Virus record (IMG/VR): IMGVR_UViG_3300042517_000577
Span: 1-64,000 of that record
Source: a virus
Reading direction: 5' to 3' (one strand)
DNA length: 64,000 nucleotides
The position numbers and the translations under genes are program-made. Position 1 is the first letter of the stretch. Every line of letters begins with the position of its first letter. The notes below the pieces were generated by a model. That model saw nothing but the letters and a program-made list of their open reading frames with translations. It had not been told where the DNA came from and searched no databases. This document shows, in pieces, positions 6,019 through 60,587 of this stretch.

Positions 6019-6075
6019 GTGCCACTTGTAGCACTGTCCATAACATTCCCATTTGCACCCTGTGGGTGCTATAAT
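6019..6075 (+). promoter_or_regulatory. Early stem-loop promoter cassette (PeSL-like) 6
   Basis: The GTGCCA left arm is present (6019-6024) but its usual right arm has decayed to TGTCCA. A perfect GCACCC/GGGTGC hairpin (6055-6069) abuts the -10 box TATAAT (6070-6075). It follows tRNA-Thr and drives the helicase gene. Confidence 0.6.
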
Positions 6076-6093
6076 ACTTGTATTGATTTGATT

Positions 6094-7332
6094 ATGATGC
6101 TGAACCTTCTTCCTTATCAACAACGTGCTCTCAAGGCAGTTCAAAATGCTATCAGGGGTTCTGTTTATATTCCTACTGGTGGTGGTAAGACTGTTGTGAT
6201 GATGGAAGATGCACGTCAACGTGTTCTAAATGCACTAGAACCGATGACGTTTGTTGTTGTCGCACCTCGTATTCTGCTTGCAAATCAACTCTGTTCGGAG
6301 TTCGAAGAATATCTCAAAGACCAGAATGTTTCTTATCTGCACGTTCACAGTGGAGAAACTCATCATCAATCCTCTACACGTCCATCAGTCATTGCAGAAT
6401 ACAATGACACTGCAATCGGAAGTGGTAAACATCAATTTATCTTCACCACATACAATTCGATAGGTCGTGTGAATGAAGCAGATATTAACATTGATGTTGT
6501 GTATTTCGATGAGGCACATCACTGTGTGAAACCATCTAATTTTGTGGGTATTGCTCACACTTCAGCAGTTGCAGATAATGCTTATTTCTTCACTGCAACT
6601 CCAAAGTTCAATAACAGCAAGGAGTCGATGAACAATACTGATGTTTATGGTAATAACATCATCAGTATTCCTGCACAAGAACTCATTGAGGCAGGTAGTA
6701 TCATTCCTCCCAAAGTTGTGCCTTATGAAGCACAAACTATTCGTACCAAAGAAAATGCACCTTTTGTCGATGCTGAAAACATCATCGGTATTCTTTCGGA
6801 AATTGAAGAAGAAACCACTGCTAAAGTTCTTGTTGCTGCTCCTAGTACTAAAGTAATCTGGGCAATGTTTACTGAGAGTGATTTGCTTCAACAACTCAAT
6901 GATATGGGTTATACTATTATGCACATCACTTCCAAGCATGGTGCTTATATCGACAAACAGAAAGTGTCCCGTGAAGTATTCTTCCAGAAGATGAATGAGT
7001 TTGGTGCTGACCCAGACAAGAAGTTCATTGTATTTCACTATAGCATCTTGTCTGAAGGTATGAATGTTCACGGTCTGACCCATTGCATTATGCTTCGCAA
7101 TCTTCCTCTGATTGAAATGGCACAGACTGTTGGACGTGTTATCCGTATGCACCGTGATGATCGACAAGCAATCGCAGATGGTAAGATGAAAGCAGGTGAG
7201 TTTGCTTTCTATAAGAAACCCTTTGGCACTATCACTATTCCTGTGAACAACAACTATGGTGATAAGATTGCTCGTCAACTTCAAACTGTCGTTGATACTA
7301 TCTTTGTGAAGGGTGAAGTTCTTGTTGCCTAG
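6094..7332 (+). CDS. SF2 DEAD/DEAH-box helicase (not UvsW)
   Basis: A 412-residue superfamily 2 helicase with all core motifs: Walker A PTGGGKT (27-33), DEAH (139-142), TAT (167-169) and motif VI QTVGRVIR (344-351). It would use ATP to unwind or move along DNA or RNA. I start it at ATG 6094 (or 6097) because the longer frame runs back through the upstream stem-loop and -10 box. It resembles the helicase part of restriction-type (ResIII) proteins but lacks any nuclease or extra domain. UvsW is a separate gene at 59097, so this is a second SF2 helicase, placed in the early region beside a nuclease/methylase pair. It has its own early-type promoter. Confidence 0.88.
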   Translation: MMLNLLPYQQRALKAVQNAIRGSVYIPTGGGKTVVMMEDARQRVLNALEPMTFVVVAPRILLANQLCSEFEEYLKDQNVSYLHVHSGETHHQSSTRPSVIAEYNDTAIGSGKHQFIFTTYNSIGRVNEADINIDVVYFDEAHHCVKPSNFVGIAHTSAVADNAYFFTATPKFNNSKESMNNTDVYGNNIISIPAQELIEAGSIIPPKVVPYEAQTIRTKENAPFVDAENIIGILSEIEEETTAKVLVAAPSTKVIWAMFTESDLLQQLNDMGYTIMHITSKHGAYIDKQKVSREVFFQKMNEFGADPDKKFIVFHYSILSEGMNVHGLTHCIMLRNLPLIEMAQTVGRVIRMHRDDRQAIADGKMKAGEFAFYKKPFGTITIPVNNNYGDKIARQLQTVVDTIFVKGEVLVA

Positions 7333-13290: not shown

Positions 13291-13308
13291 CCCCTATATC
13301 GTCCATTT
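13291..13308 (+). repeat. 18-bp direct repeat, copy 1
   Basis: CCCCTATATCGTCCATTT, identical to 13504-13521. It lies 2 bp after the last stop codon of the early region. The CTATAT core resembles the CTATAA of the early -10 boxes. Confidence 0.6.
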
Positions 13309-13327: not shown

Positions 13328-13349
13328 TTTTCCACAGGGTTGCGGAAAA
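13328..13349 (+). repeat. DnaA-box palindrome, isolated copy
   Basis: TTTTCCACA (13328-13336), GGGT spacer, then TGCGGAAAA (13341-13349), one base off the inverted box. It stands about 375 bp upstream of the main array. Confidence 0.7.
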
Positions 13350-13503
13350 GATTGTTTTGATTTCCACATTTTTTTATTGTTAAATTTATTATGATGCGTG
13401 AATTGTATGTTTGTGTTGTTTGATTGTTAATGTGTTCTCTTATTGTTATCTTGGCGAACACAATAACATATAAACAGTGATTTGTCAAGGGTTTACAGGA
13501 CAC

Positions 13504-13521
13504 CCCCTATATCGTCCATTT
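13504..13521 (+). repeat. 18-bp direct repeat, copy 2
   Basis: Exact second copy of 13291-13308, again preceded by AC. A partial third (TTCGTCCATC) lies at about 13856. Their spacing from the DnaA boxes differs, so they may be a separate binding site. Confidence 0.6.
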
Positions 13522-13720: not shown

Positions 13721-13798
13721 TAGTTTTCCACAGGGTTGTGGAAAAAGTACAATAGTTTTCCACAGGGTTGTGGAAAAAGTCTAATAGTTTTCCACAGG
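13721..13798 (+). repeat. 32-bp-period array of cyanobacterial-type DnaA boxes
   Basis: Two full 32-bp units (13721-13752, 13753-13784) and a third partial unit (13785-13798). Each full unit is TTTTCCACA, GGGT, TGTGGAAAA: two DnaA boxes face to face (13724-13745, 13756-13777), and a single box follows at 13788-13796. TTTTCCACA is the box form reported for cyanobacteria (E. coli uses TTATCCACA). The period is about three helical turns, so boxes lie on one face. Neither strand places a T-run after the stem, so terminators are unlikely. Confidence 0.75.
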
Positions 13799-13807
13799 TT
13801 ATTATAC

Positions 13808-13836
13808 TTGACAGTCTTTGATTGTTCGTGTATAAT
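13808..13836 (+). promoter_or_regulatory. Consensus sigma70 promoter
   Basis: TTGACA (13808-13813), 17-bp spacer, TATAAT (13831-13836): a perfect match to the housekeeping promoter, 10 bp after the last DnaA box. Transcription would start near 13843, giving a leader of about 158 nt before the 14001 gene, or a short RNA that could prime replication. It is the only promoter in the window with a perfect -35. Confidence 0.8.
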
Positions 13837-14000
13837 TATAGGCAGTAATTCCGATTCGTCCATCGACAGTTATATCGGGGGTTGTTGTATTATATTATAT
13901 TGTAATGCGGTTATAAGAAAAAGGGTCCTATCCAACCTACAGAGGTGACAAATCGAGTGAGTGATATCAAGTGTTAAAAAAAATTTTTTGGGGTCAAAAA

Positions 14001-14147
14001 ATGCCTGTAAGGTTGCTCTATGAGAGGGGGTGGGGAACAAGTATAAGTCCTTTAGATGAGATCGAATATATTGTAAGTTGTCTGAGAGAAACCTTAAATA
14101 TACTTAAATCCCATATTCGTAAAAAAATTTCCCAGGGTAAAAAATGA
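14001..14147 (+). CDS. Small basic hypothetical protein
   Basis: A 48-residue frame starting after an A-rich stretch (GGGGTCAAAAAATG), with an ATGA overlap to the next gene. Begins MPVRLLYERGW, ends in a basic helix (LKSHIRKKISQGKK). The upstream bases and the first residues resemble those of the next gene (GGGTAAAAAATG; MTYRLIARDR), so the two may be diverged copies. Confidence 0.4.
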   Translation: MPVRLLYERGWGTSISPLDEIEYIVSCLRETLNILKSHIRKKISQGKK

Positions 14148-14314
14148 CATATAGGTTAATTGCAAGGGACAGGGTATTTTGTGAGGGAACTTTGAATGAA
14201 TGTCAAAAGACACTCACAGACATTTCCCAGATGATTAGTGCAGGATTATCTACGGATTTCCAAGTAGAAGAGTTTGTGATACTAAAAAATAAATATCTAA
14301 AAAACGAACAATGA
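14144..14314 (+). CDS. Small hypothetical protein
   Basis: A 56-residue protein, ATGA-coupled on both sides, so it sits in one operon with 14001 and 14311. N-terminal strand (YRLIARDRVFCEG) and a central helix (LNECQKTLTDISQMI). No family recognised. Confidence 0.5.
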   Translation: MTYRLIARDRVFCEGTLNECQKTLTDISQMISAGLSTDFQVEEFVILKNKYLKNEQ

Positions 14315-14526
14315 AGACTTTCCAAGAATTTTTAGATGAGGCAGGGGATTGGTGGCATCCAGATCCTAAGAAGGATCGTAGGATCAGTGGACCTGCGAAT
14401 AAGATGAGAGCAAAAGAAGATCGTGGAGAGGATACATCAGTACAGAAGAAACCAGATTATAGTAAAAGATTAATGCCAGGTGAGACATATCTACAATTTG
14501 CCAATCGTAAGAAGGCAGGAAAATGA
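14311..14526 (+). CDS. Capsid-targeted internal-protein-like protein
   Basis: A 71-residue protein starting MKTFQEFLDE|AGDWW. T4 internal proteins IPI-IPIII start with the capsid-targeting sequence MKTYQEFIAE|A, which the prohead protease gp21 cuts after the Glu; the match is 7 of 10 residues with conservative changes, and L-x-E fits the gp21 site. The predicted mature protein is 61 residues and basic (GPANKMRAKEDRGEDTSVQK, then SKRLMPGETYLQFANRKKAG). By analogy it would be packed in the head and injected with the DNA; T4 IPI blocks a host restriction enzyme this way. What this one does inside the host is unknown. It could instead be a structural protein that only shares the targeting tag. 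Confidence 0.65.
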   Translation: MKTFQEFLDEAGDWWHPDPKKDRRISGPANKMRAKEDRGEDTSVQKKPDYSKRLMPGETYLQFANRKKAGK

Positions 14527-14831
14527 ATTGGTTTGAGTATTGGATTGGTCATTGTTGGATGAGTGGGTGGCAATCTATCAGAGGGGCATATAGAATATGG
14601 TCTGATTTAATGACAGACAATTATAAGGATTATGCACTCCTTCCTAGTGATGACCCTTACACAGAATGTCTAGAATGGTTCTGGGTGTCACTTGGTGAGG
14701 ACAATACTTATCCCAGGGAGTTTCTGGAATATCTGATACAACTGGCAAAAGATGTGGAAAGTGGTAAGGAAAAAACTATTCCTGTGGATGAGGATTTCTT
14801 TGATAGACTGAAAGAATCTCTTGAATTGTGA
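14523..14831 (+). CDS. Hypothetical protein, possible paralogue of the 503 gene product
   Basis: A 102-residue protein, ATGA-coupled to the capsid-targeted gene. The N-terminus is very Trp-rich (NWFEYWIGHCWMSGWQS). The middle and end (CLEWFWVSLGEDNTYP, LIQLAKDV, then TIPVDEDFFDRLKESLEL) line up with the 503-856 protein (GEFWESLS, LRLAQEL, ITLSVEDYNELVERL), which suggests a shared origin. It lacks the RK-P-W end. Function unknown. Confidence 0.55.
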   Translation: MNWFEYWIGHCWMSGWQSIRGAYRIWSDLMTDNYKDYALLPSDDPYTECLEWFWVSLGEDNTYPREFLEYLIQLAKDVESGKEKTIPVDEDFFDRLKESLEL

Positions 14832-16537: not shown

Positions 16538-16945
16538 GTGCCAGTAGAATCTGCAGTATCAAGATATTTTAAAGATATCAGTTTGTCTTTTAAAAGACAT
16601 CCTGTAACCAATGATATTGCTGTGATTACAAATGAAGATGCAATTAAAAGATCTGTCATCAATCTAGTTCGTACTAGAATTGGTGAGAGATTTTTTAATT
16701 CTCTTCTGGGATCAAATGTGGAATCAATGTTATTTGAACTTGCAGATTCTGGAATTGTCGATCCAATCACAGAAGAGATTAGTACTACAATTAATAACTT
16801 CGAACCACGAGTTAATTTAAGGCAAGTAAATGTTGATTTAAGGGCAGACCAAAATGAGATGGAGGTTTTCATCATTTATGACATTGTTGGACTTGCTGTT
16901 CCTACACAAAATATAACCTTCGTATTACAACCAACAAGATACTAA
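16538..16945 (+). CDS. 25: gp25 baseplate wedge subunit
   Basis: A 135-residue protein with a GTG start. Matches T4 gp25 (132 residues) in length and in the lysozyme-like fold motifs: N-terminal YFKDISLSFKRHPVTNDIAV, then AIKRSVINLVRTRIGERFFN and SNVESMLFE. gp25 ties baseplate wedges to the first sheath ring and nucleates sheath contraction. It is followed by gp6 with a one-base overlap, the usual T4-type cyanophage order. Confidence 0.93.
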   Translation: MPVESAVSRYFKDISLSFKRHPVTNDIAVITNEDAIKRSVINLVRTRIGERFFNSLLGSNVESMLFELADSGIVDPITEEISTTINNFEPRVNLRQVNVDLRADQNEMEVFIIYDIVGLAVPTQNITFVLQPTRY

Positions 16946-18819
16946 TGGCATTTACTCAATTTACAAATCTAGACTTTGATCTAGTCAAAACATCCATTAA
17001 AGATTATCTTAGGTCAAATAGCACCTTTACAGATTTTGACTTTGAAGGTTCTAATTTATCTGTCCTGATTGATATTCTTGCCTACAACACTTATATTACT
17101 GCATATAACAGTAATATGGTGGCAAATGAATCCTTCTTGGATAGTGCCACACTTCGAGAGAATGTAGTTTCTTTGGCAAGAAACATTGGATTTGTGCCTT
17201 TATCTAGAAGAGCAGCAAAGGCAAATGTCTCAATGTTAGCATCTGGACTAGAAAATACTGATTTAAAGACTGCTACACTCAAGGCAGGGATTGTTTGTAC
17301 TGGAAATCAGAGAAATACTTCATACATTTTCTCAATTCCTGAAGATATTACAGTTGGTATTGATGATGGGGAAGCATTCTTAAGTGAAATTGACATCTAT
17401 CAGGGCACATTTTTAACAAAAACCTTCACAGTTGATAATTCTCAACCAAATCAGAAGTATATTTTACCAAATCCATACATTGATACCTCAACAATTCGTG
17501 TAAAAGTTGCGGTAAATGGTACAACAGAGCAATATTCTTACGTAGATAACATAATTGGCATCAATTCTCAATCACAAATCTTCTTGGTTCAGGAAATTTC
17601 TGACGAAAAGTATGAAATTTTCTTTGGAGATGGTATTTTTGGTAAAAAACCTGAGAATGGAAGTGTCATTACAGTAAGTTATATCACTACAGATGGAAAA
17701 GATGGCAATGGTGCCTCAAATTTCACATTTTCAGGCACACTAGTTGGGGAAGATTCATCAAATTTAAGTGGAAGTGTTGGTTCAGTCATCACAAATTCGG
17801 CAGCAGAGAACGGAGATAGCATTCAACCTACCGAATCTGTACGTTATTATGCTCCAAGACTGTATGCATCGCAGTATAGAGCAGTAACAGCAAATGATTA
17901 TGAGGCACTTTTACCTTCTATATTCCCAAATGTAGAATCTGTGACTGCTTATGGGGGTGAAGAACTCACTCCACCAGAATATGGAACAGTATATTTGGCA
18001 GTTAAACCAAAAAATTCTGATTATTTGTCAGAATTTACAAAACAATCAATCTTAAATTCATTAAAACAATATAGTGTAGCAGGAATTAAAGTCAGATTTA
18101 CTGATATTAATGTACTATACGTAGAATTGGATTCTACAGTTTATTATAATTCAAATTTAGTGAATTCTGTTAGTGATCTGGAATCGCAAGTTTATACATC
18201 ACTAGATTCTTACTCAAATTCTTCAGATTTGAATAGATTTGGTGGAAGATTTAAGTATAGTAAGGCATTGAGATCAATAGATGCTACAAATGATGCTATT
18301 ACGTCAAACATTACTAGAGTTATAATTAGAAGGAATATTGGTATTATCAAGAATCCAACTAATTATGAAATTTGCTTTGAAAATAGATTTAATGTTTCGC
18401 CAAGTGGATACAATATAAGATCTACTGGGTTTAAAATTCAAGGAAATTCTAAGACACTTTATATTTCAGACACTCCAAAGTCCGATTTAAAAACTGGAAC
18501 CTTATTCCTATTCTCTATTGAAAATAATAAGGTTGTTATTGAGACAACTTCTGTTGGTACAGTAGATTATATCACTGGTGAAATACGTATAGATAATATA
18601 AATGTAAGTTCTACATCTGTTGAAAATGACATTATTCAAATTGAGGCAACCCCTTACTCCAACGATATTATTGCTAGAAAATCAGTATATTTAAAACTTG
18701 ATGTTGGAAGTAGCAAAATTTCACTTGTGAAGGACATCATTTCATCTGGTGAGAATTCGTCTGGAAGTAGATTTAACCCCGAATCAAGTTATACAACAGA
18801 GTCAAAAATAAGAAACTAA
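16945..18819 (+). CDS. 6: gp6 baseplate wedge subunit
   Basis: A 624-residue protein (T4 gp6 has 660). The N-terminus (LDFDLVKTSIKDYLRSN, then FEGSNLSVLIDILAYNTYI) and the long middle part (NDYEALLPSIFPNVESVTAYGG) are typical of the gp6/gpJ baseplate family, whose dimers form the ring that holds the wedges together. Overlaps gp25 by one base, and the next gene starts 1 bp after its stop. No signs of damage. Confidence 0.92.
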   Translation: MAFTQFTNLDFDLVKTSIKDYLRSNSTFTDFDFEGSNLSVLIDILAYNTYITAYNSNMVANESFLDSATLRENVVSLARNIGFVPLSRRAAKANVSMLASGLENTDLKTATLKAGIVCTGNQRNTSYIFSIPEDITVGIDDGEAFLSEIDIYQGTFLTKTFTVDNSQPNQKYILPNPYIDTSTIRVKVAVNGTTEQYSYVDNIIGINSQSQIFLVQEISDEKYEIFFGDGIFGKKPENGSVITVSYITTDGKDGNGASNFTFSGTLVGEDSSNLSGSVGSVITNSAAENGDSIQPTESVRYYAPRLYASQYRAVTANDYEALLPSIFPNVESVTAYGGEELTPPEYGTVYLAVKPKNSDYLSEFTKQSILNSLKQYSVAGIKVRFTDINVLYVELDSTVYYNSNLVNSVSDLESQVYTSLDSYSNSSDLNRFGGRFKYSKALRSIDATNDAITSNITRVIIRRNIGIIKNPTNYEICFENRFNVSPSGYNIRSTGFKIQGNSKTLYISDTPKSDLKTGTLFLFSIENNKVVIETTSVGTVDYITGEIRIDNINVSSTSVENDIIQIEATPYSNDIIARKSVYLKLDVGSSKISLVKDIISSGENSSGSRFNPESSYTTESKIRN

Positions 18820-44043: not shown

Positions 44044-44928
44044 ATGAAAGATCCCAAGGGTCCAACCAGACCATATAAAACTGCAGAAGAAATTGCCAAG
44101 AAGCATAATGTTTCATTGGATTATATCAATAAGCAAGTTGAACTTGGAACTGAAGTTGAGTTCGAGCATACTACTAGTAAGAAAAATGCAGAAATAACTG
44201 CTCTACAGCATTTAGAGGAACTTCCAGATTATTACAGTAGATTAAAAAAGATGGAAAAAAAGAAATCTTCAGTCAAAGAATCTTTAGATAATAATAGAGA
44301 ACTTCTTGCTGGAAAAAGATATTGCTTATTATGCAACAAGCACGAGACAGAATCAGAGTGCTCTTGGGGTCCTAATATGTGGAAAAAGTATAGCATTGCT
44401 TCCATTCATCCAACAAATGAATCTGCAATTTATGAAGATCATAAAGAGATTGCAAGTGGAAAGAAGAAAGATGAAGAAGGATATATGGCAAGAATTGAAT
44501 TTGATCAAATTGAAAGGTCAATTAATATTTTAAGAAAATTAGTTAAGAAGGGAGATCAGCAATTACCTGCTTGGGTACAATCAAAAATCACTAGAGCAGC
44601 AGACTTTATTGATACTGCAGCAGAATATATTTCTAGTGACGAAGATGTATCTGAAGGAAAAACATATTCTCAATTTATGACTGAAGTTGCTGCTTGGCAG
44701 AGAAAGGAAGGAAAAAATCCTGAGGGTGGACTTAATGAAAAGGGGAGAAGATCTTATGAAGATGAAAATCCTGGAAGTGATCTCAAACCACCTCAACCCG
44801 AAGGTGGACCACGTAAAAGATCTTTCTGTGCTCGTATGGGAGGAATGCCTGGTCCTATGAAAGATGAAAAAGGTAGACCTACTAGAAAAGCACTAGCACT
44901 TAGAAAATGGCACTGTGGAAAAAAATAA
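44044..44928 (+). CDS. Multi-domain protein between gp16 and gp17, with internal capsid-targeting-like site
   Basis: A 294-residue protein in four parts. (a) 12-75: DUF5661-like helices (AEEIAKKHNVSLDYINKQVE). (b) 94-106: C-x2-C-x8-C cluster (CLLCNKHETESEC), possibly metal-binding. (c) 150-198: a helical repeat common in cyanophage proteins (LPAWVQSKITRAADFIDTAA). (d) 206-294: KTYSQFMTE|VAAW followed by a basic Cys-containing domain of the DUF6321 type (FCARMGGMPG, ALALRKWHCGKK). Part (d) starts like a T4 capsid-targeting tag and has an M-T-E site that gp21 could cut, which would free an 80-residue basic piece. In related proteins that I recall, DUF6321 occurs alone with this tag at its N-terminus, so this looks like a fusion. 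Cutting is inferred. Confidence 0.7.
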   Translation: MKDPKGPTRPYKTAEEIAKKHNVSLDYINKQVELGTEVEFEHTTSKKNAEITALQHLEELPDYYSRLKKMEKKKSSVKESLDNNRELLAGKRYCLLCNKHETESECSWGPNMWKKYSIASIHPTNESAIYEDHKEIASGKKKDEEGYMARIEFDQIERSINILRKLVKKGDQQLPAWVQSKITRAADFIDTAAEYISSDEDVSEGKTYSQFMTEVAAWQRKEGKNPEGGLNEKGRRSYEDENPGSDLKPPQPEGGPRKRSFCARMGGMPGPMKDEKGRPTRKALALRKWHCGKK

Positions 44929-59096: not shown

Positions 59097-60587
59097 ATGG
59101 CAGATCTTATTATATCCAAGAAAAATGAAATATATTTAAAAGTAGAATGCGAACCTCATATCAAATACGAACTGAGTGATCAATTTACTTTTGATGTTCC
59201 TGGGGCAAAGTTTATGCCTCAATTCAGGAGCAAGCATTGGGATGGAAAAATTAGATTATTCAACGTTCAAACTGGAGAGATCTATGTTGGTCTATTGGAT
59301 AAACTAATTACTTTTTGCGATAATCATAACTATAAGTTTGAGTTCAAAGAAAACAAATATTATGGATTTCCTGGAGAAGTAGATTCTACTATTTCTATGG
59401 AGGGAGTGAAAGATTATATGAAAAGTATATGCTCTCACGAACCAAGAGATTATCAAATACAAGGAGTTTATGATGCATTAAAATATAAAAGAAAGTTAAT
59501 TCTTTCTCCAACTGCATCTGGAAAATCTTTAATGATTTACTCTGTGGTTAGATATTTTGTCGAGAAAGGAAAGAACATACTCCTCATAGTCCCTACCACA
59601 TCACTCGTAGAACAGATGTATAAGGACTTTGAAGACTATGGATGGAACTCTGAGGCATATTGCCACAAAATCTATGGTGGAATGTCTAGAGAGGCAGAAA
59701 AACCAGTTACAATATCCACTTGGCAATCAATATACAAATTAGATAAATCTTATTTCCAAAACTATGATGTAGTCATTGGAGATGAGGCACATCAATTCAA
59801 ATCTAAATCTTTAATCAGCATTATGGATAAACTTCACGATGCAAAATATAGATTTGGATTTACTGGTACTTTAGATGGATCTCAAACTCACAAACTAGTT
59901 TTAGAAGGATTGTTTGGTCCAACATATAAACTTATCAAGACTGATGACCTCATTAAAAAGGGTTATCTATCTCAATTAAAAATTAAAGTTCTTCTTCTAT
60001 CTCATGACGATAATGAATTTAATGATTATGAAGAAGAAGTTCAATATTTAATTGGAAACGGTAAAAGAAATAATTTTATAAAAAATTTAGTTTTGGATTT
60101 AAAGGGAAATACTCTTGTATTGTTTAATCGTGTTGCAACTCATGGTCAACCATTATATGAACTCATAAATAAGAGTGCCAGTGAAAATAGAAAAATATTT
60201 TTTATTCATGGTGGAGTGGATACTGAAGAGAGAGAATTGGTAAGAAAAATTACCGAGGAAGAATCCAATGCGATTATTGTTGCTTCTTATGGCACTTTTA
60301 GTACAGGTATCAATATTAGAAACTTACACAATATTGTCTTCGCATCACCTTCAAAATCTAGAATAAGAAATCTCCAATCAATTGGAAGAGTTCTCCGAAA
60401 GGGAAAAGAAAAAGTATCAGCAACCTTATATGATATTGCTGATGAAGTTAAATACAAATCAAAAAGAAATTATACTTTAAATCATTTGATTGAAAGAATT
60501 AAAATTTACAATGAAGAAAACTTTGATTATGAAATTATCACCATCAACTTCAAAACAAATGGAAGAAGACTTTTATGCAACAATTAA
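59097..60587 (+). CDS. uvsW: UvsW helicase
   Basis: A 496-residue SF2 helicase (T4 UvsW 503). The N-terminal 110 residues form the double-stranded DNA binding domain (PQFRSKHWDGKIRLFNVQTG). Core motifs: Walker A PTASGKS (138-144), DEAH (229-232), GFTGT, and QSIGRVLRKG. UvsW unwinds R-loops and branched DNA and moves T4 from origin-based to recombination-based replication. Its last 29 nt overlap the next gene. Confidence 0.94.
   Translation: MADLIISKKNEIYLKVECEPHIKYELSDQFTFDVPGAKFMPQFRSKHWDGKIRLFNVQTGEIYVGLLDKLITFCDNHNYKFEFKENKYYGFPGEVDSTISMEGVKDYMKSICSHEPRDYQIQGVYDALKYKRKLILSPTASGKSLMIYSVVRYFVEKGKNILLIVPTTSLVEQMYKDFEDYGWNSEAYCHKIYGGMSREAEKPVTISTWQSIYKLDKSYFQNYDVVIGDEAHQFKSKSLISIMDKLHDAKYRFGFTGTLDGSQTHKLVLEGLFGPTYKLIKTDDLIKKGYLSQLKIKVLLLSHDDNEFNDYEEEVQYLIGNGKRNNFIKNLVLDLKGNTLVLFNRVATHGQPLYELINKSASENRKIFFIHGGVDTEERELVRKITEEESNAIIVASYGTFSTGINIRNLHNIVFASPSKSRIRNLQSIGRVLRKGKEKVSATLYDIADEVKYKSKRNYTLNHLIERIKIYNEENFDYEIITINFKTNGRRLLCNN

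What the first reader, a model, noticed from the sequence alone, without database searches (positions are those of the whole stretch)
13721..13836. Array of palindromic cyanobacterial-type DnaA boxes beside a perfect sigma70 promoter
Seen: TTTTCCACA-GGGT-TGTGGAAAA twice at a 32-bp period, a third half unit, an isolated near-copy at 13328, then TTGACA-17-TATAAT starting 10 bp later, all in the only long gene-free stretch, with an A8T6 tract downstream. Known: TTTTCCACA is the DnaA box form reported for cyanobacteria; T4-type phages are not known to use host DnaA. Inference: this phage may recruit host DnaA to start its first replication round (with the promoter giving a primer or opening the duplex), or may use the array to titrate DnaA and stop host initiation, or to control the 14001-14831 operon.
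Basis: partly seen in the sequence, partly recalled or inferred. Interest (0 to 1): 0.82.

Follow-up and report, generated by a model that had tools for sequence, protein, structure and literature searches.

The report
Cyanophage replication-origin module with DnaA boxes
A virus of photosynthetic bacteria carries copies of its host's own 'start DNA copying here' signals, set around a conserved backward-pointing promoter at the spot where the related phage T4 has a replication origin, which suggests that these viruses borrow the host's initiator protein to begin copying their genome.

Summary
TTTTCCACA-GGGT-TGTGGAAAA occurs twice at a 32-bp period, with a third half-site, a near-copy at 13328 and a perfect sigma70 promoter at 13808-13836. 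The array is the visible part of a larger module shared by many T4-type cyanophages. Its core is a previously hidden minus-strand promoter, P_left (13460-13488 here), with a conserved start sequence. P_left fires away from gp25-gp6; about 100 nt downstream there is usually an A+T-rich element. DnaA boxes sit 0-200 nt downstream of P_left and upstream of it, almost nowhere else. A scan blind to boxes and genes found P_left in 92 viral stretches. In all 46 of the 87 new matches that hold gp25/gp6, it is on the opposite strand, 2.8-9.1 kb upstream. That is the place and polarity of T4 oriE (minus-strand primer RNA, 1.7 kb upstream of gene 6). Boxes occur in about a quarter (box-blind) of modules and match host oriC boxes, including the TTATCCACA variant. 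Best reading: an oriE-type, RNA-primed origin that many lineages have coupled to host DnaA. Origin activity and DnaA binding are inferred, not shown; GC skew gives no support. New variant of a known kind, directly testable.

The parts
13291..13308 (+). Left copy of an 18-bp direct repeat CCCCTATATCGTCCATTT that brackets cluster A and P_left; role unknown
   Evidence: D3. Also near the boxes in L006, L018, L028, L045 and L052
13328..13368 (.). DnaA-box cluster A: 13328-13336 (+, exact), 13341-13349 (-, TTTTCCGCA), 13360-13368 (+, ATTTCCACA)
   Evidence: Lies about 85-125 nt downstream of the P_left start, the zone where boxes concentrate in relatives
13369..13395 (.). A+T-rich tract TTTTTTTATTGTTAAATTTATTATGAT, proposed unwinding element
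   Evidence: Least stable 40-mer in the module is in the most unstable 2% of the contig. The family AT-element HMM does NOT detect it, so identification rests on position and composition
13460..13488 (-). P_left: leftward sigma70-type promoter, TTGACA (13488-13483), 17 bp, TATTGT (13465-13460); RNA start about 13453 (inferred)
   Evidence: HMM built without the window and its close relatives finds 13438-13493 at E=2.4e-5, next best 0.88. Promoter anatomy
13438..13459 (-). Conserved discriminator and start of the leftward RNA (GTTCGCCAAGATAACAATAAGA)
   Evidence: Family form GCnCGCYAAGAYnACAA
13504..13521 (+). Right copy of the 18-bp direct repeat
13724..13796 (.). DnaA-box cluster B: two palindromic pairs (13724-13745, 13756-13777) and a half-site (13788-13796), 32-bp period
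   Evidence: Identical boxes in L018 and L028 while one spacer differs
13808..13836 (+). P_right: perfect TTGACA-17-TATAAT promoter
   Evidence: Outward promoters with at most 1 mismatch flank 13/60 box-cluster groups against 1/60 inward
13976..13989 (+). A8T6 tract, not shown to belong to the module
16538..16945 (+). gp25 baseplate wedge, positional anchor
   Evidence: PHROG 261, E=1.3e-50
16945..18819 (+). gp6 baseplate wedge, anchor; module lies 3.5 kb upstream
   Evidence: PHROG 219, E=1.8e-193; distance
59097..60587 (+). UvsW-type helicase (T4 UvsW acts on origin R-loops, from my own knowledge); context only
   Evidence: Pfam UvsW_N, E=4.6e-16

Best explanation
The array belongs to a replication-origin module of T4-type cyanophages, the positional counterpart of T4 oriE. 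Host RNA polymerase starts a short non-coding RNA leftward from P_left (13488 to 13460). The RNA runs through an A+T-rich tract (13369-13395) into DnaA-box cluster A. By analogy with T4 oriE and oriF the RNA stays hybridised (R-loop) and primes leading-strand synthesis by the phage replisome. Host DnaA, bound to clusters A (13328-13368) and B (13724-13796), would help melt or hold open the tract, or stall polymerase to set the primer end. Shown: boxes, promoter, their conservation, fixed geometry and synteny. Inferred: DnaA binding, R-loop, priming, origin activity.
For: (1) A pattern scan for P_left alone, blind to boxes and genes, found 92 viral stretches. In all 46 of the 87 new matches that also hold gp25/gp6, P_left is on the opposite strand, 2.8-9.1 kb upstream. 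T4 oriE is annotated as (-) strand direction with its primer RNA complementary to the gene 5 transcript, 1.7 kb upstream of gene 6. T4 oriE uses an early promoter, and oriF/oriG are a promoter plus a downstream A+T-rich element that forms an R-loop primer (PMC3016281). (2) AT element and P_left pair on the same strand 5-311 bp apart in 78 sequences, against 0 pairs in the reversed decoy. (3) Boxes cluster at 0 to +200 nt (107 boxes in 64 modules), with further groups upstream mainly at -50 to -450 and -800 to -950, and almost none elsewhere. In the box-blind set 12 of 46 modules have boxes, and every box within 2 kb lies between -800 and +400. (4) Box identity: TTATCCACA, the hosts' other oriC box, is the commonest one-mismatch variant (9 seen, 0 expected). 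(5) The RNA has no conserved fold, few ORFs above 30 aa, and in 29 of 36 loci no leftward ORF of 60 aa or more starts before the first convergent ORF. (6) In nine genomes with a significant promoter hit, the best one lies 2.7-10.9 kb upstream of gp6 on its strand.
Against: No GC-skew reversal at the array in 9 genomes; skew is monotone, as expected from one-strand coding and recombination-driven replication. Boxes are missing from many modules, including S-SRM01, Sf-FS3, S-SSM7 and SynMITS9220M01, so DnaA cannot be essential to the family. The window's A+T tract is not recognised by the family HMM. P-SSM2 and S-T4 show no significant module. In some phages (S-BM3, S-8S56, S-CAM9) P_left could simply serve leftward genes. 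There is no sequence similarity to T4 oriE itself. No binding, RNA or replication data were available.
Confidence: 0.6

Rival explanations
1. Transcription control without an origin: the module is an early regulatory region. Host DnaA bound to the boxes activates, represses or road-blocks P_left and P_right, tying early phage transcription (a non-coding antisense RNA on the left, the 14.0-14.8 kb operon on the right) to host DnaA activity.
For: Boxes flank good sigma70 promoters: outward promoter with at most 1 mismatch in 13/60 groups against 1/60 inward and 2.5% at random positions. In some phages P_left precedes leftward genes (S-BM3, S-8S56, S-CAM9). DnaA is a known transcription regulator (own knowledge).
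Against: The distance from boxes to the -35 varies widely (3 to about 90 bp), unlike a fixed activator site. The leftward RNA usually has no gene. It does not explain the paired A+T-rich element or the synteny and polarity shared with T4 oriE.
Confidence: 0.22
2. DnaA titration: the array is a sink (like E. coli datA) that, amplified by phage replication, strips the host of DnaA and stops host initiation.
For: Several high-quality boxes per genome in tight clusters; a multicopy phage could out-titrate a host oriC of about 4-11 boxes.
Against: Only about 3-10 clustered boxes per genome, confined to one promoter module at one position. A sink could sit anywhere and needs neither P_left nor the AT element.
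Confidence: 0.07
3. The boxes are operators for a phage-encoded DNA-binding protein that happens to resemble a DnaA box.
For: Phage half-sites have an extended form, AGTTTTCCACAGG, and a rigid palindrome with a 4-nt spacer that is rare in hosts.
Against: The commonest one-mismatch variant is TTATCCACA, exactly the other host oriC box; host oriC boxes share the following G or GG. No DnaA-like phage gene was identified, but this was not searched for exhaustively.
Confidence: 0.06

Closest known systems
T4 oriE (Escherichia phage T4, upstream of gene 6)
   Same: Same side of gp6-gp7, same polarity (minus-strand primer RNA), early-type promoter, and a cluster of short repeats of unknown role. In a minority of cyanophages small leftward genes follow, as repEA/repEB do in T4.
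   Different: No sequence similarity. The repeats here are host DnaA boxes, not the T4 12-nt iterons. Activity is unproven. Lies in a gene-free region instead of inside gene 5.
T4 oriF / oriG (R-loop origins)
   Same: Promoter followed within about 100 bp by an A+T-rich unwinding element (PMC3016281).
   Different: sigma70 early-type promoter here, not a MotA middle promoter; DnaA boxes added; R-loop not tested.
Cyanobacterial oriC (DnaA boxes TTTTCCACA beside dnaN)
   Same: Same 9-mer and the same second variant TTATCCACA, clustered next to A+T-rich DNA (PMC4674748).
   Different: No dnaN or dnaA alongside, no skew reversal, palindromic pairs with 4-nt spacer, conserved promoter and start sequence; phage-specific.
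Plasmid origins that use host DnaA with their own elements (P1 oriR, pSC101, iteron plasmids; own knowledge)
   Same: A mobile replicon recruiting host DnaA beside its own elements.
   Different: No iteron-binding Rep protein identified; lytic T4-type phage with its own replisome; transcript priming proposed.

Membership tests
Cyanobacterial DnaA-box cluster | 9-mer TTTTCCACA | tested here: met
   Six exact and two one-mismatch copies within 470 bp; the motif matches published cyanobacterial boxes
Cyanobacterial DnaA-box cluster | Same recognition range as host oriC (TTATCCACA as second form) | tested here: met
   Family-wide, TTATCCACA is the commonest one-mismatch variant, 9 seen against 0 expected; none in the window itself
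Cyanobacterial DnaA-box cluster | Bound by DnaA protein | not testable with these tools
   Needs gel shift or footprint
Bacterial oriC | Adjacent dnaA or dnaN and GC-skew reversal | tested here: not met
   Neighbours are small phage ORFs and gp25/gp6; skew monotone in 9 genomes
Bacterial oriC | DnaA-trio repeats next to the boxes | tested here: inconclusive
   Read by eye only; A+T-rich DNA makes degenerate trios uninformative
T4 oriE-type / R-loop origin | Promoter for a primer RNA on the strand opposite gp6, upstream of gp6 | tested here: met
   46 of 46 box- and gene-blind loci that hold gp25/gp6; T4 annotation; window by leave-out HMM, E=2.4e-5
T4 oriE-type / R-loop origin | A+T-rich unwinding element downstream of the promoter | tested here: met
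   Family: pairs in 78 sequences, decoy 0. In the window only weakly, by composition
T4 oriE-type / R-loop origin | Evenly spaced 12-nt iterons (oriE) | tested here: inconclusive
   Window has a 32-bp period of DnaA-box units instead
T4 oriE-type / R-loop origin | Sequence similarity to T4 oriE | tested here: not met
   HMMs of both elements give no credible hit in T4 78-90 kb; positional, not sequence, equivalence
T4 oriE-type / R-loop origin | R-loop, nascent strands or autonomous replication | not testable with these tools
   Needs infection experiments

The most novel reading that the evidence does not exclude
A hybrid origin: T4-type cyanophages keep an oriE-equivalent RNA-primed origin and many lineages have fused it to the host's DnaA initiator system, so that a lytic phage with its own full replisome uses the cell's DnaA to open or license its first origin, possibly tying infection to the host cell cycle.
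Probability: 0.5. Interest if true: 0.9.

Novelty: new variant of a known kind. Interest (0 to 1): 0.82.

Why it matters
No cyanophage paper in the searched library describes a T4-type origin or DnaA boxes there. If right, this locates a candidate early replication origin in many T4-type cyanophages, gives a family-wide counterpart to T4 oriE (whose repeats have had no assigned role), and adds lytic myoviruses to the replicons that recruit host DnaA. The sequence signature (P_left, A+T element, boxes) can be scanned in any cyanophage genome. Cultured phages with boxes (S-PM2, S-RIM32, P-TIM68, DSL-LC02, DSL-LC03) and without boxes (Sf-FS3, SynMITS9220M01, S-SRM01) offer a natural comparison of DnaA-coupled and uncoupled forms.

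Tried and rejected
Terminator: the palindrome has no following U-run and has T4/A4 on the wrong sides. Known RNA family: Rfam gives no match near threshold. Structured leftward RNA: RNAalifold finds no consensus fold. Leftward small protein: no ORF of useful length in most lineages. GC skew as an origin marker: monotone, uninformative. Direct sequence homology to T4 oriE: none. Fixed spacing of boxes to the -35 (class I/II activation): spacing too variable. First attempts at promoter alignment and a transcript script failed on the search pattern and were redone.

Full report
OBSERVATION. The array is in the sequence as described: two perfect palindromic pairs TTTTCCACA-GGGT-TGTGGAAAA at 13724 and 13756, a half-site at 13788, a near-copy at 13328, and TTGACA-17-TATAAT at 13808-13836. 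The record is a 72,165-base IMG/VR contig with T4-type structural genes (gp25, gp6, portal, sheath, terminase, major head protein, UvsW, gp47). It holds 8 exact 9-mers; simulations give about 1, and never a palindromic pair. The exact 22-mer occurs in 71 viral stretches, far beyond chance.

THE BOXES ARE HOST-TYPE DnaA BOXES. Published work gives TTTTCCACA as the box of Synechococcus, Anabaena and most cyanobacteria (PMC4674748). I took dnaN loci from 30 small cyanobacterial genomes and two further oriC-like regions. Clusters of TTTTCCACA and TTATCCACA, usually followed by G or GG, lie there in many of them, though several picocyanobacteria show few. In the phage modules TTTTCCACA is about 167-fold enriched over flanks, and the commonest one-mismatch variant is TTATCCACA (9 against 0 expected). 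A phage-specific binding protein would not be expected to accept exactly the host's second box. Palindromic pairs with a short spacer are rare in hosts (15 of 242 genomes), so this packing is typical of the phages.

THE BOXES MARK A LARGER MODULE. Among 60 non-redundant A+T-rich groups of box clusters, 13 have an outward sigma70 promoter with at most one mismatch within 130 bp; one has an inward one; random positions give 2.5%. Strongly A+T-rich flanks occur in 40% against 12%. Reading these flanks gave a recurrent element, ATGTnTTAAAAAACATAn5GTGTTYTATA, which a profile finds 20-60 bp from boxes in most loci, but also in phages with no boxes at all (Sf-FS3, S-SRM01, L242). Beyond it lies a conserved promoter on the opposite strand, here called P_left: TTGACA-N17-TAnnnT with an extended -10 TG and a conserved start, GCnCGCYAAGAYnACAA. 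The two elements pair on the same strand 5-311 bp apart in 78 sequences and never in the reversed decoy. In the window P_left is at 13460-13488 (minus strand); a profile built without the window and its close relatives finds it at E=2.4e-5, next best 0.88. The window's A+T tract (13369-13395) is in the right place but too diverged for the profile; this is the weakest link for the window itself.

POSITION OF THE BOXES. In 64 non-redundant modules, boxes lie 0 to +200 nt downstream of the P_left start (107 boxes) and upstream, mainly at -50 to -450 and -800 to -950; only 5 fall in the next 1.3 kb downstream. Because many of those loci were found through the boxes, I repeated the test blind. A scan with the P_left pattern alone gave 92 stretches. 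Of 46 non-redundant new modules with enough sequence, 12 carry boxes, and all boxes within 2 kb lie between -800 and +400; the A+T element is found in 25 of 53, always in the same orientation. So P_left is the core, and boxes are a frequent but lineage-specific addition that is always placed at it.

SYNTENY WITH T4 oriE. Of the 87 new blind P_left matches, 46 stretches also contain gp25/gp6; in all 46 the promoter is on the strand opposite gp6 with gp6 2.8-9.1 kb behind it. In nine of the larger genomes checked (DSL-LC03, P-TIM68, S-RIM32, S-PM2, S-SRM01, the window's contig, three IMG/VR contigs), and in the scanned part of S-SKS1, the best promoter hit lies 2.7-10.9 kb upstream of gp6, read on gp6's strand so that P_left itself fires on the other; S-SSM5 has two boxes and a weak A+T hit 5 kb upstream; P-SSM2 and S-T4 have no significant hit. 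The window's contig was part of that profile's training set; its independent test is. In the T4 record oriE is annotated 1.7 kb upstream of gene 6, '(-) strand direction; primer RNA is complement of gene 5 transcript'. [quoted passage not shown] The cyanophage module has this anatomy, place and polarity, but no sequence similarity to T4 oriE.

MECHANISM. Host RNA polymerase makes a short leftward RNA from P_left. It is non-coding in most phages: no conserved fold, and in 29 of 36 loci no leftward ORF of 60 aa or more starts before a convergent gene is met. It crosses the A+T element, among the least stable 40-mers of several genomes (fractions 1e-5 to 2e-4 in four of eight, about 1-7% in the rest including 2% in the window), and ends among DnaA boxes. 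I infer an R-loop primer as in T4, with DnaA assisting opening, holding the strand for helicase loading, or stalling polymerase to set the primer end. DnaA binding, R-loop formation and origin activity are not shown.

AGAINST. GC skew is monotone in 9 genomes. Boxes are absent from many modules. Some phages have genes behind P_left (S-BM3, S-8S56, S-CAM9), so a purely transcriptional role stays possible. Titration fits poorly because boxes are few and confined to one promoter module.

NOVELTY. Searches of the held library for cyanophages with DnaA boxes or a replication origin returned nothing on point; subscription journals are mostly missing, so novelty is provisional. I file it as a new variant of a known kind: a T4 oriE-type origin candidate coupled to host DnaA boxes.

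Noticed in passing
window 13291-13308 and 13504-13521: 18-bp direct repeat CCCCTATATCGTCCATTT brackets cluster A and P_left; the same motif flanks boxes in L006, L028, L045 and L052. Possible lineage-specific binding site.
   Followed up: partly
window 6019-7332: Second DEAD/ResIII-type helicase (PHROG 16) about 6 kb before the module, besides UvsW at 59097-60587. S-SM2 also has a helicase just before this region.
   Followed up: partly
L195 4475-4917; L352 1517-2260; L358 1188-1856: In S-BM3, S-8S56 and S-CAM9, minus-strand genes lie behind P_left, reminiscent of T4 repEA/repEB; not compared with RepEA/RepEB.
   Followed up: no
L005, L011, L025, L051, L331, L342: Palindromic DnaA-box pairs in viral contigs with higher G+C or without the P_left module; possibly other phage groups or cyanobacterial plasmids.
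   Followed up: no
L385, L387, L388: Several picocyanobacterial dnaN loci show no or almost no recognisable DnaA boxes nearby, although related hosts' phages carry perfect ones.
   Followed up: no
L217 120-400: Imperfect tandem repeat (aacctcttataaaccttatggaaacc) between the two box clusters of this phage.
   Followed up: no
window 44378-44386 and 44914-44922: The only two exact boxes outside the module, 536 bp apart on the minus strand; likely chance.
   Followed up: no
window 4965: The only other perfect TTGACA-17-TATAAT promoter in the window.
   Followed up: no
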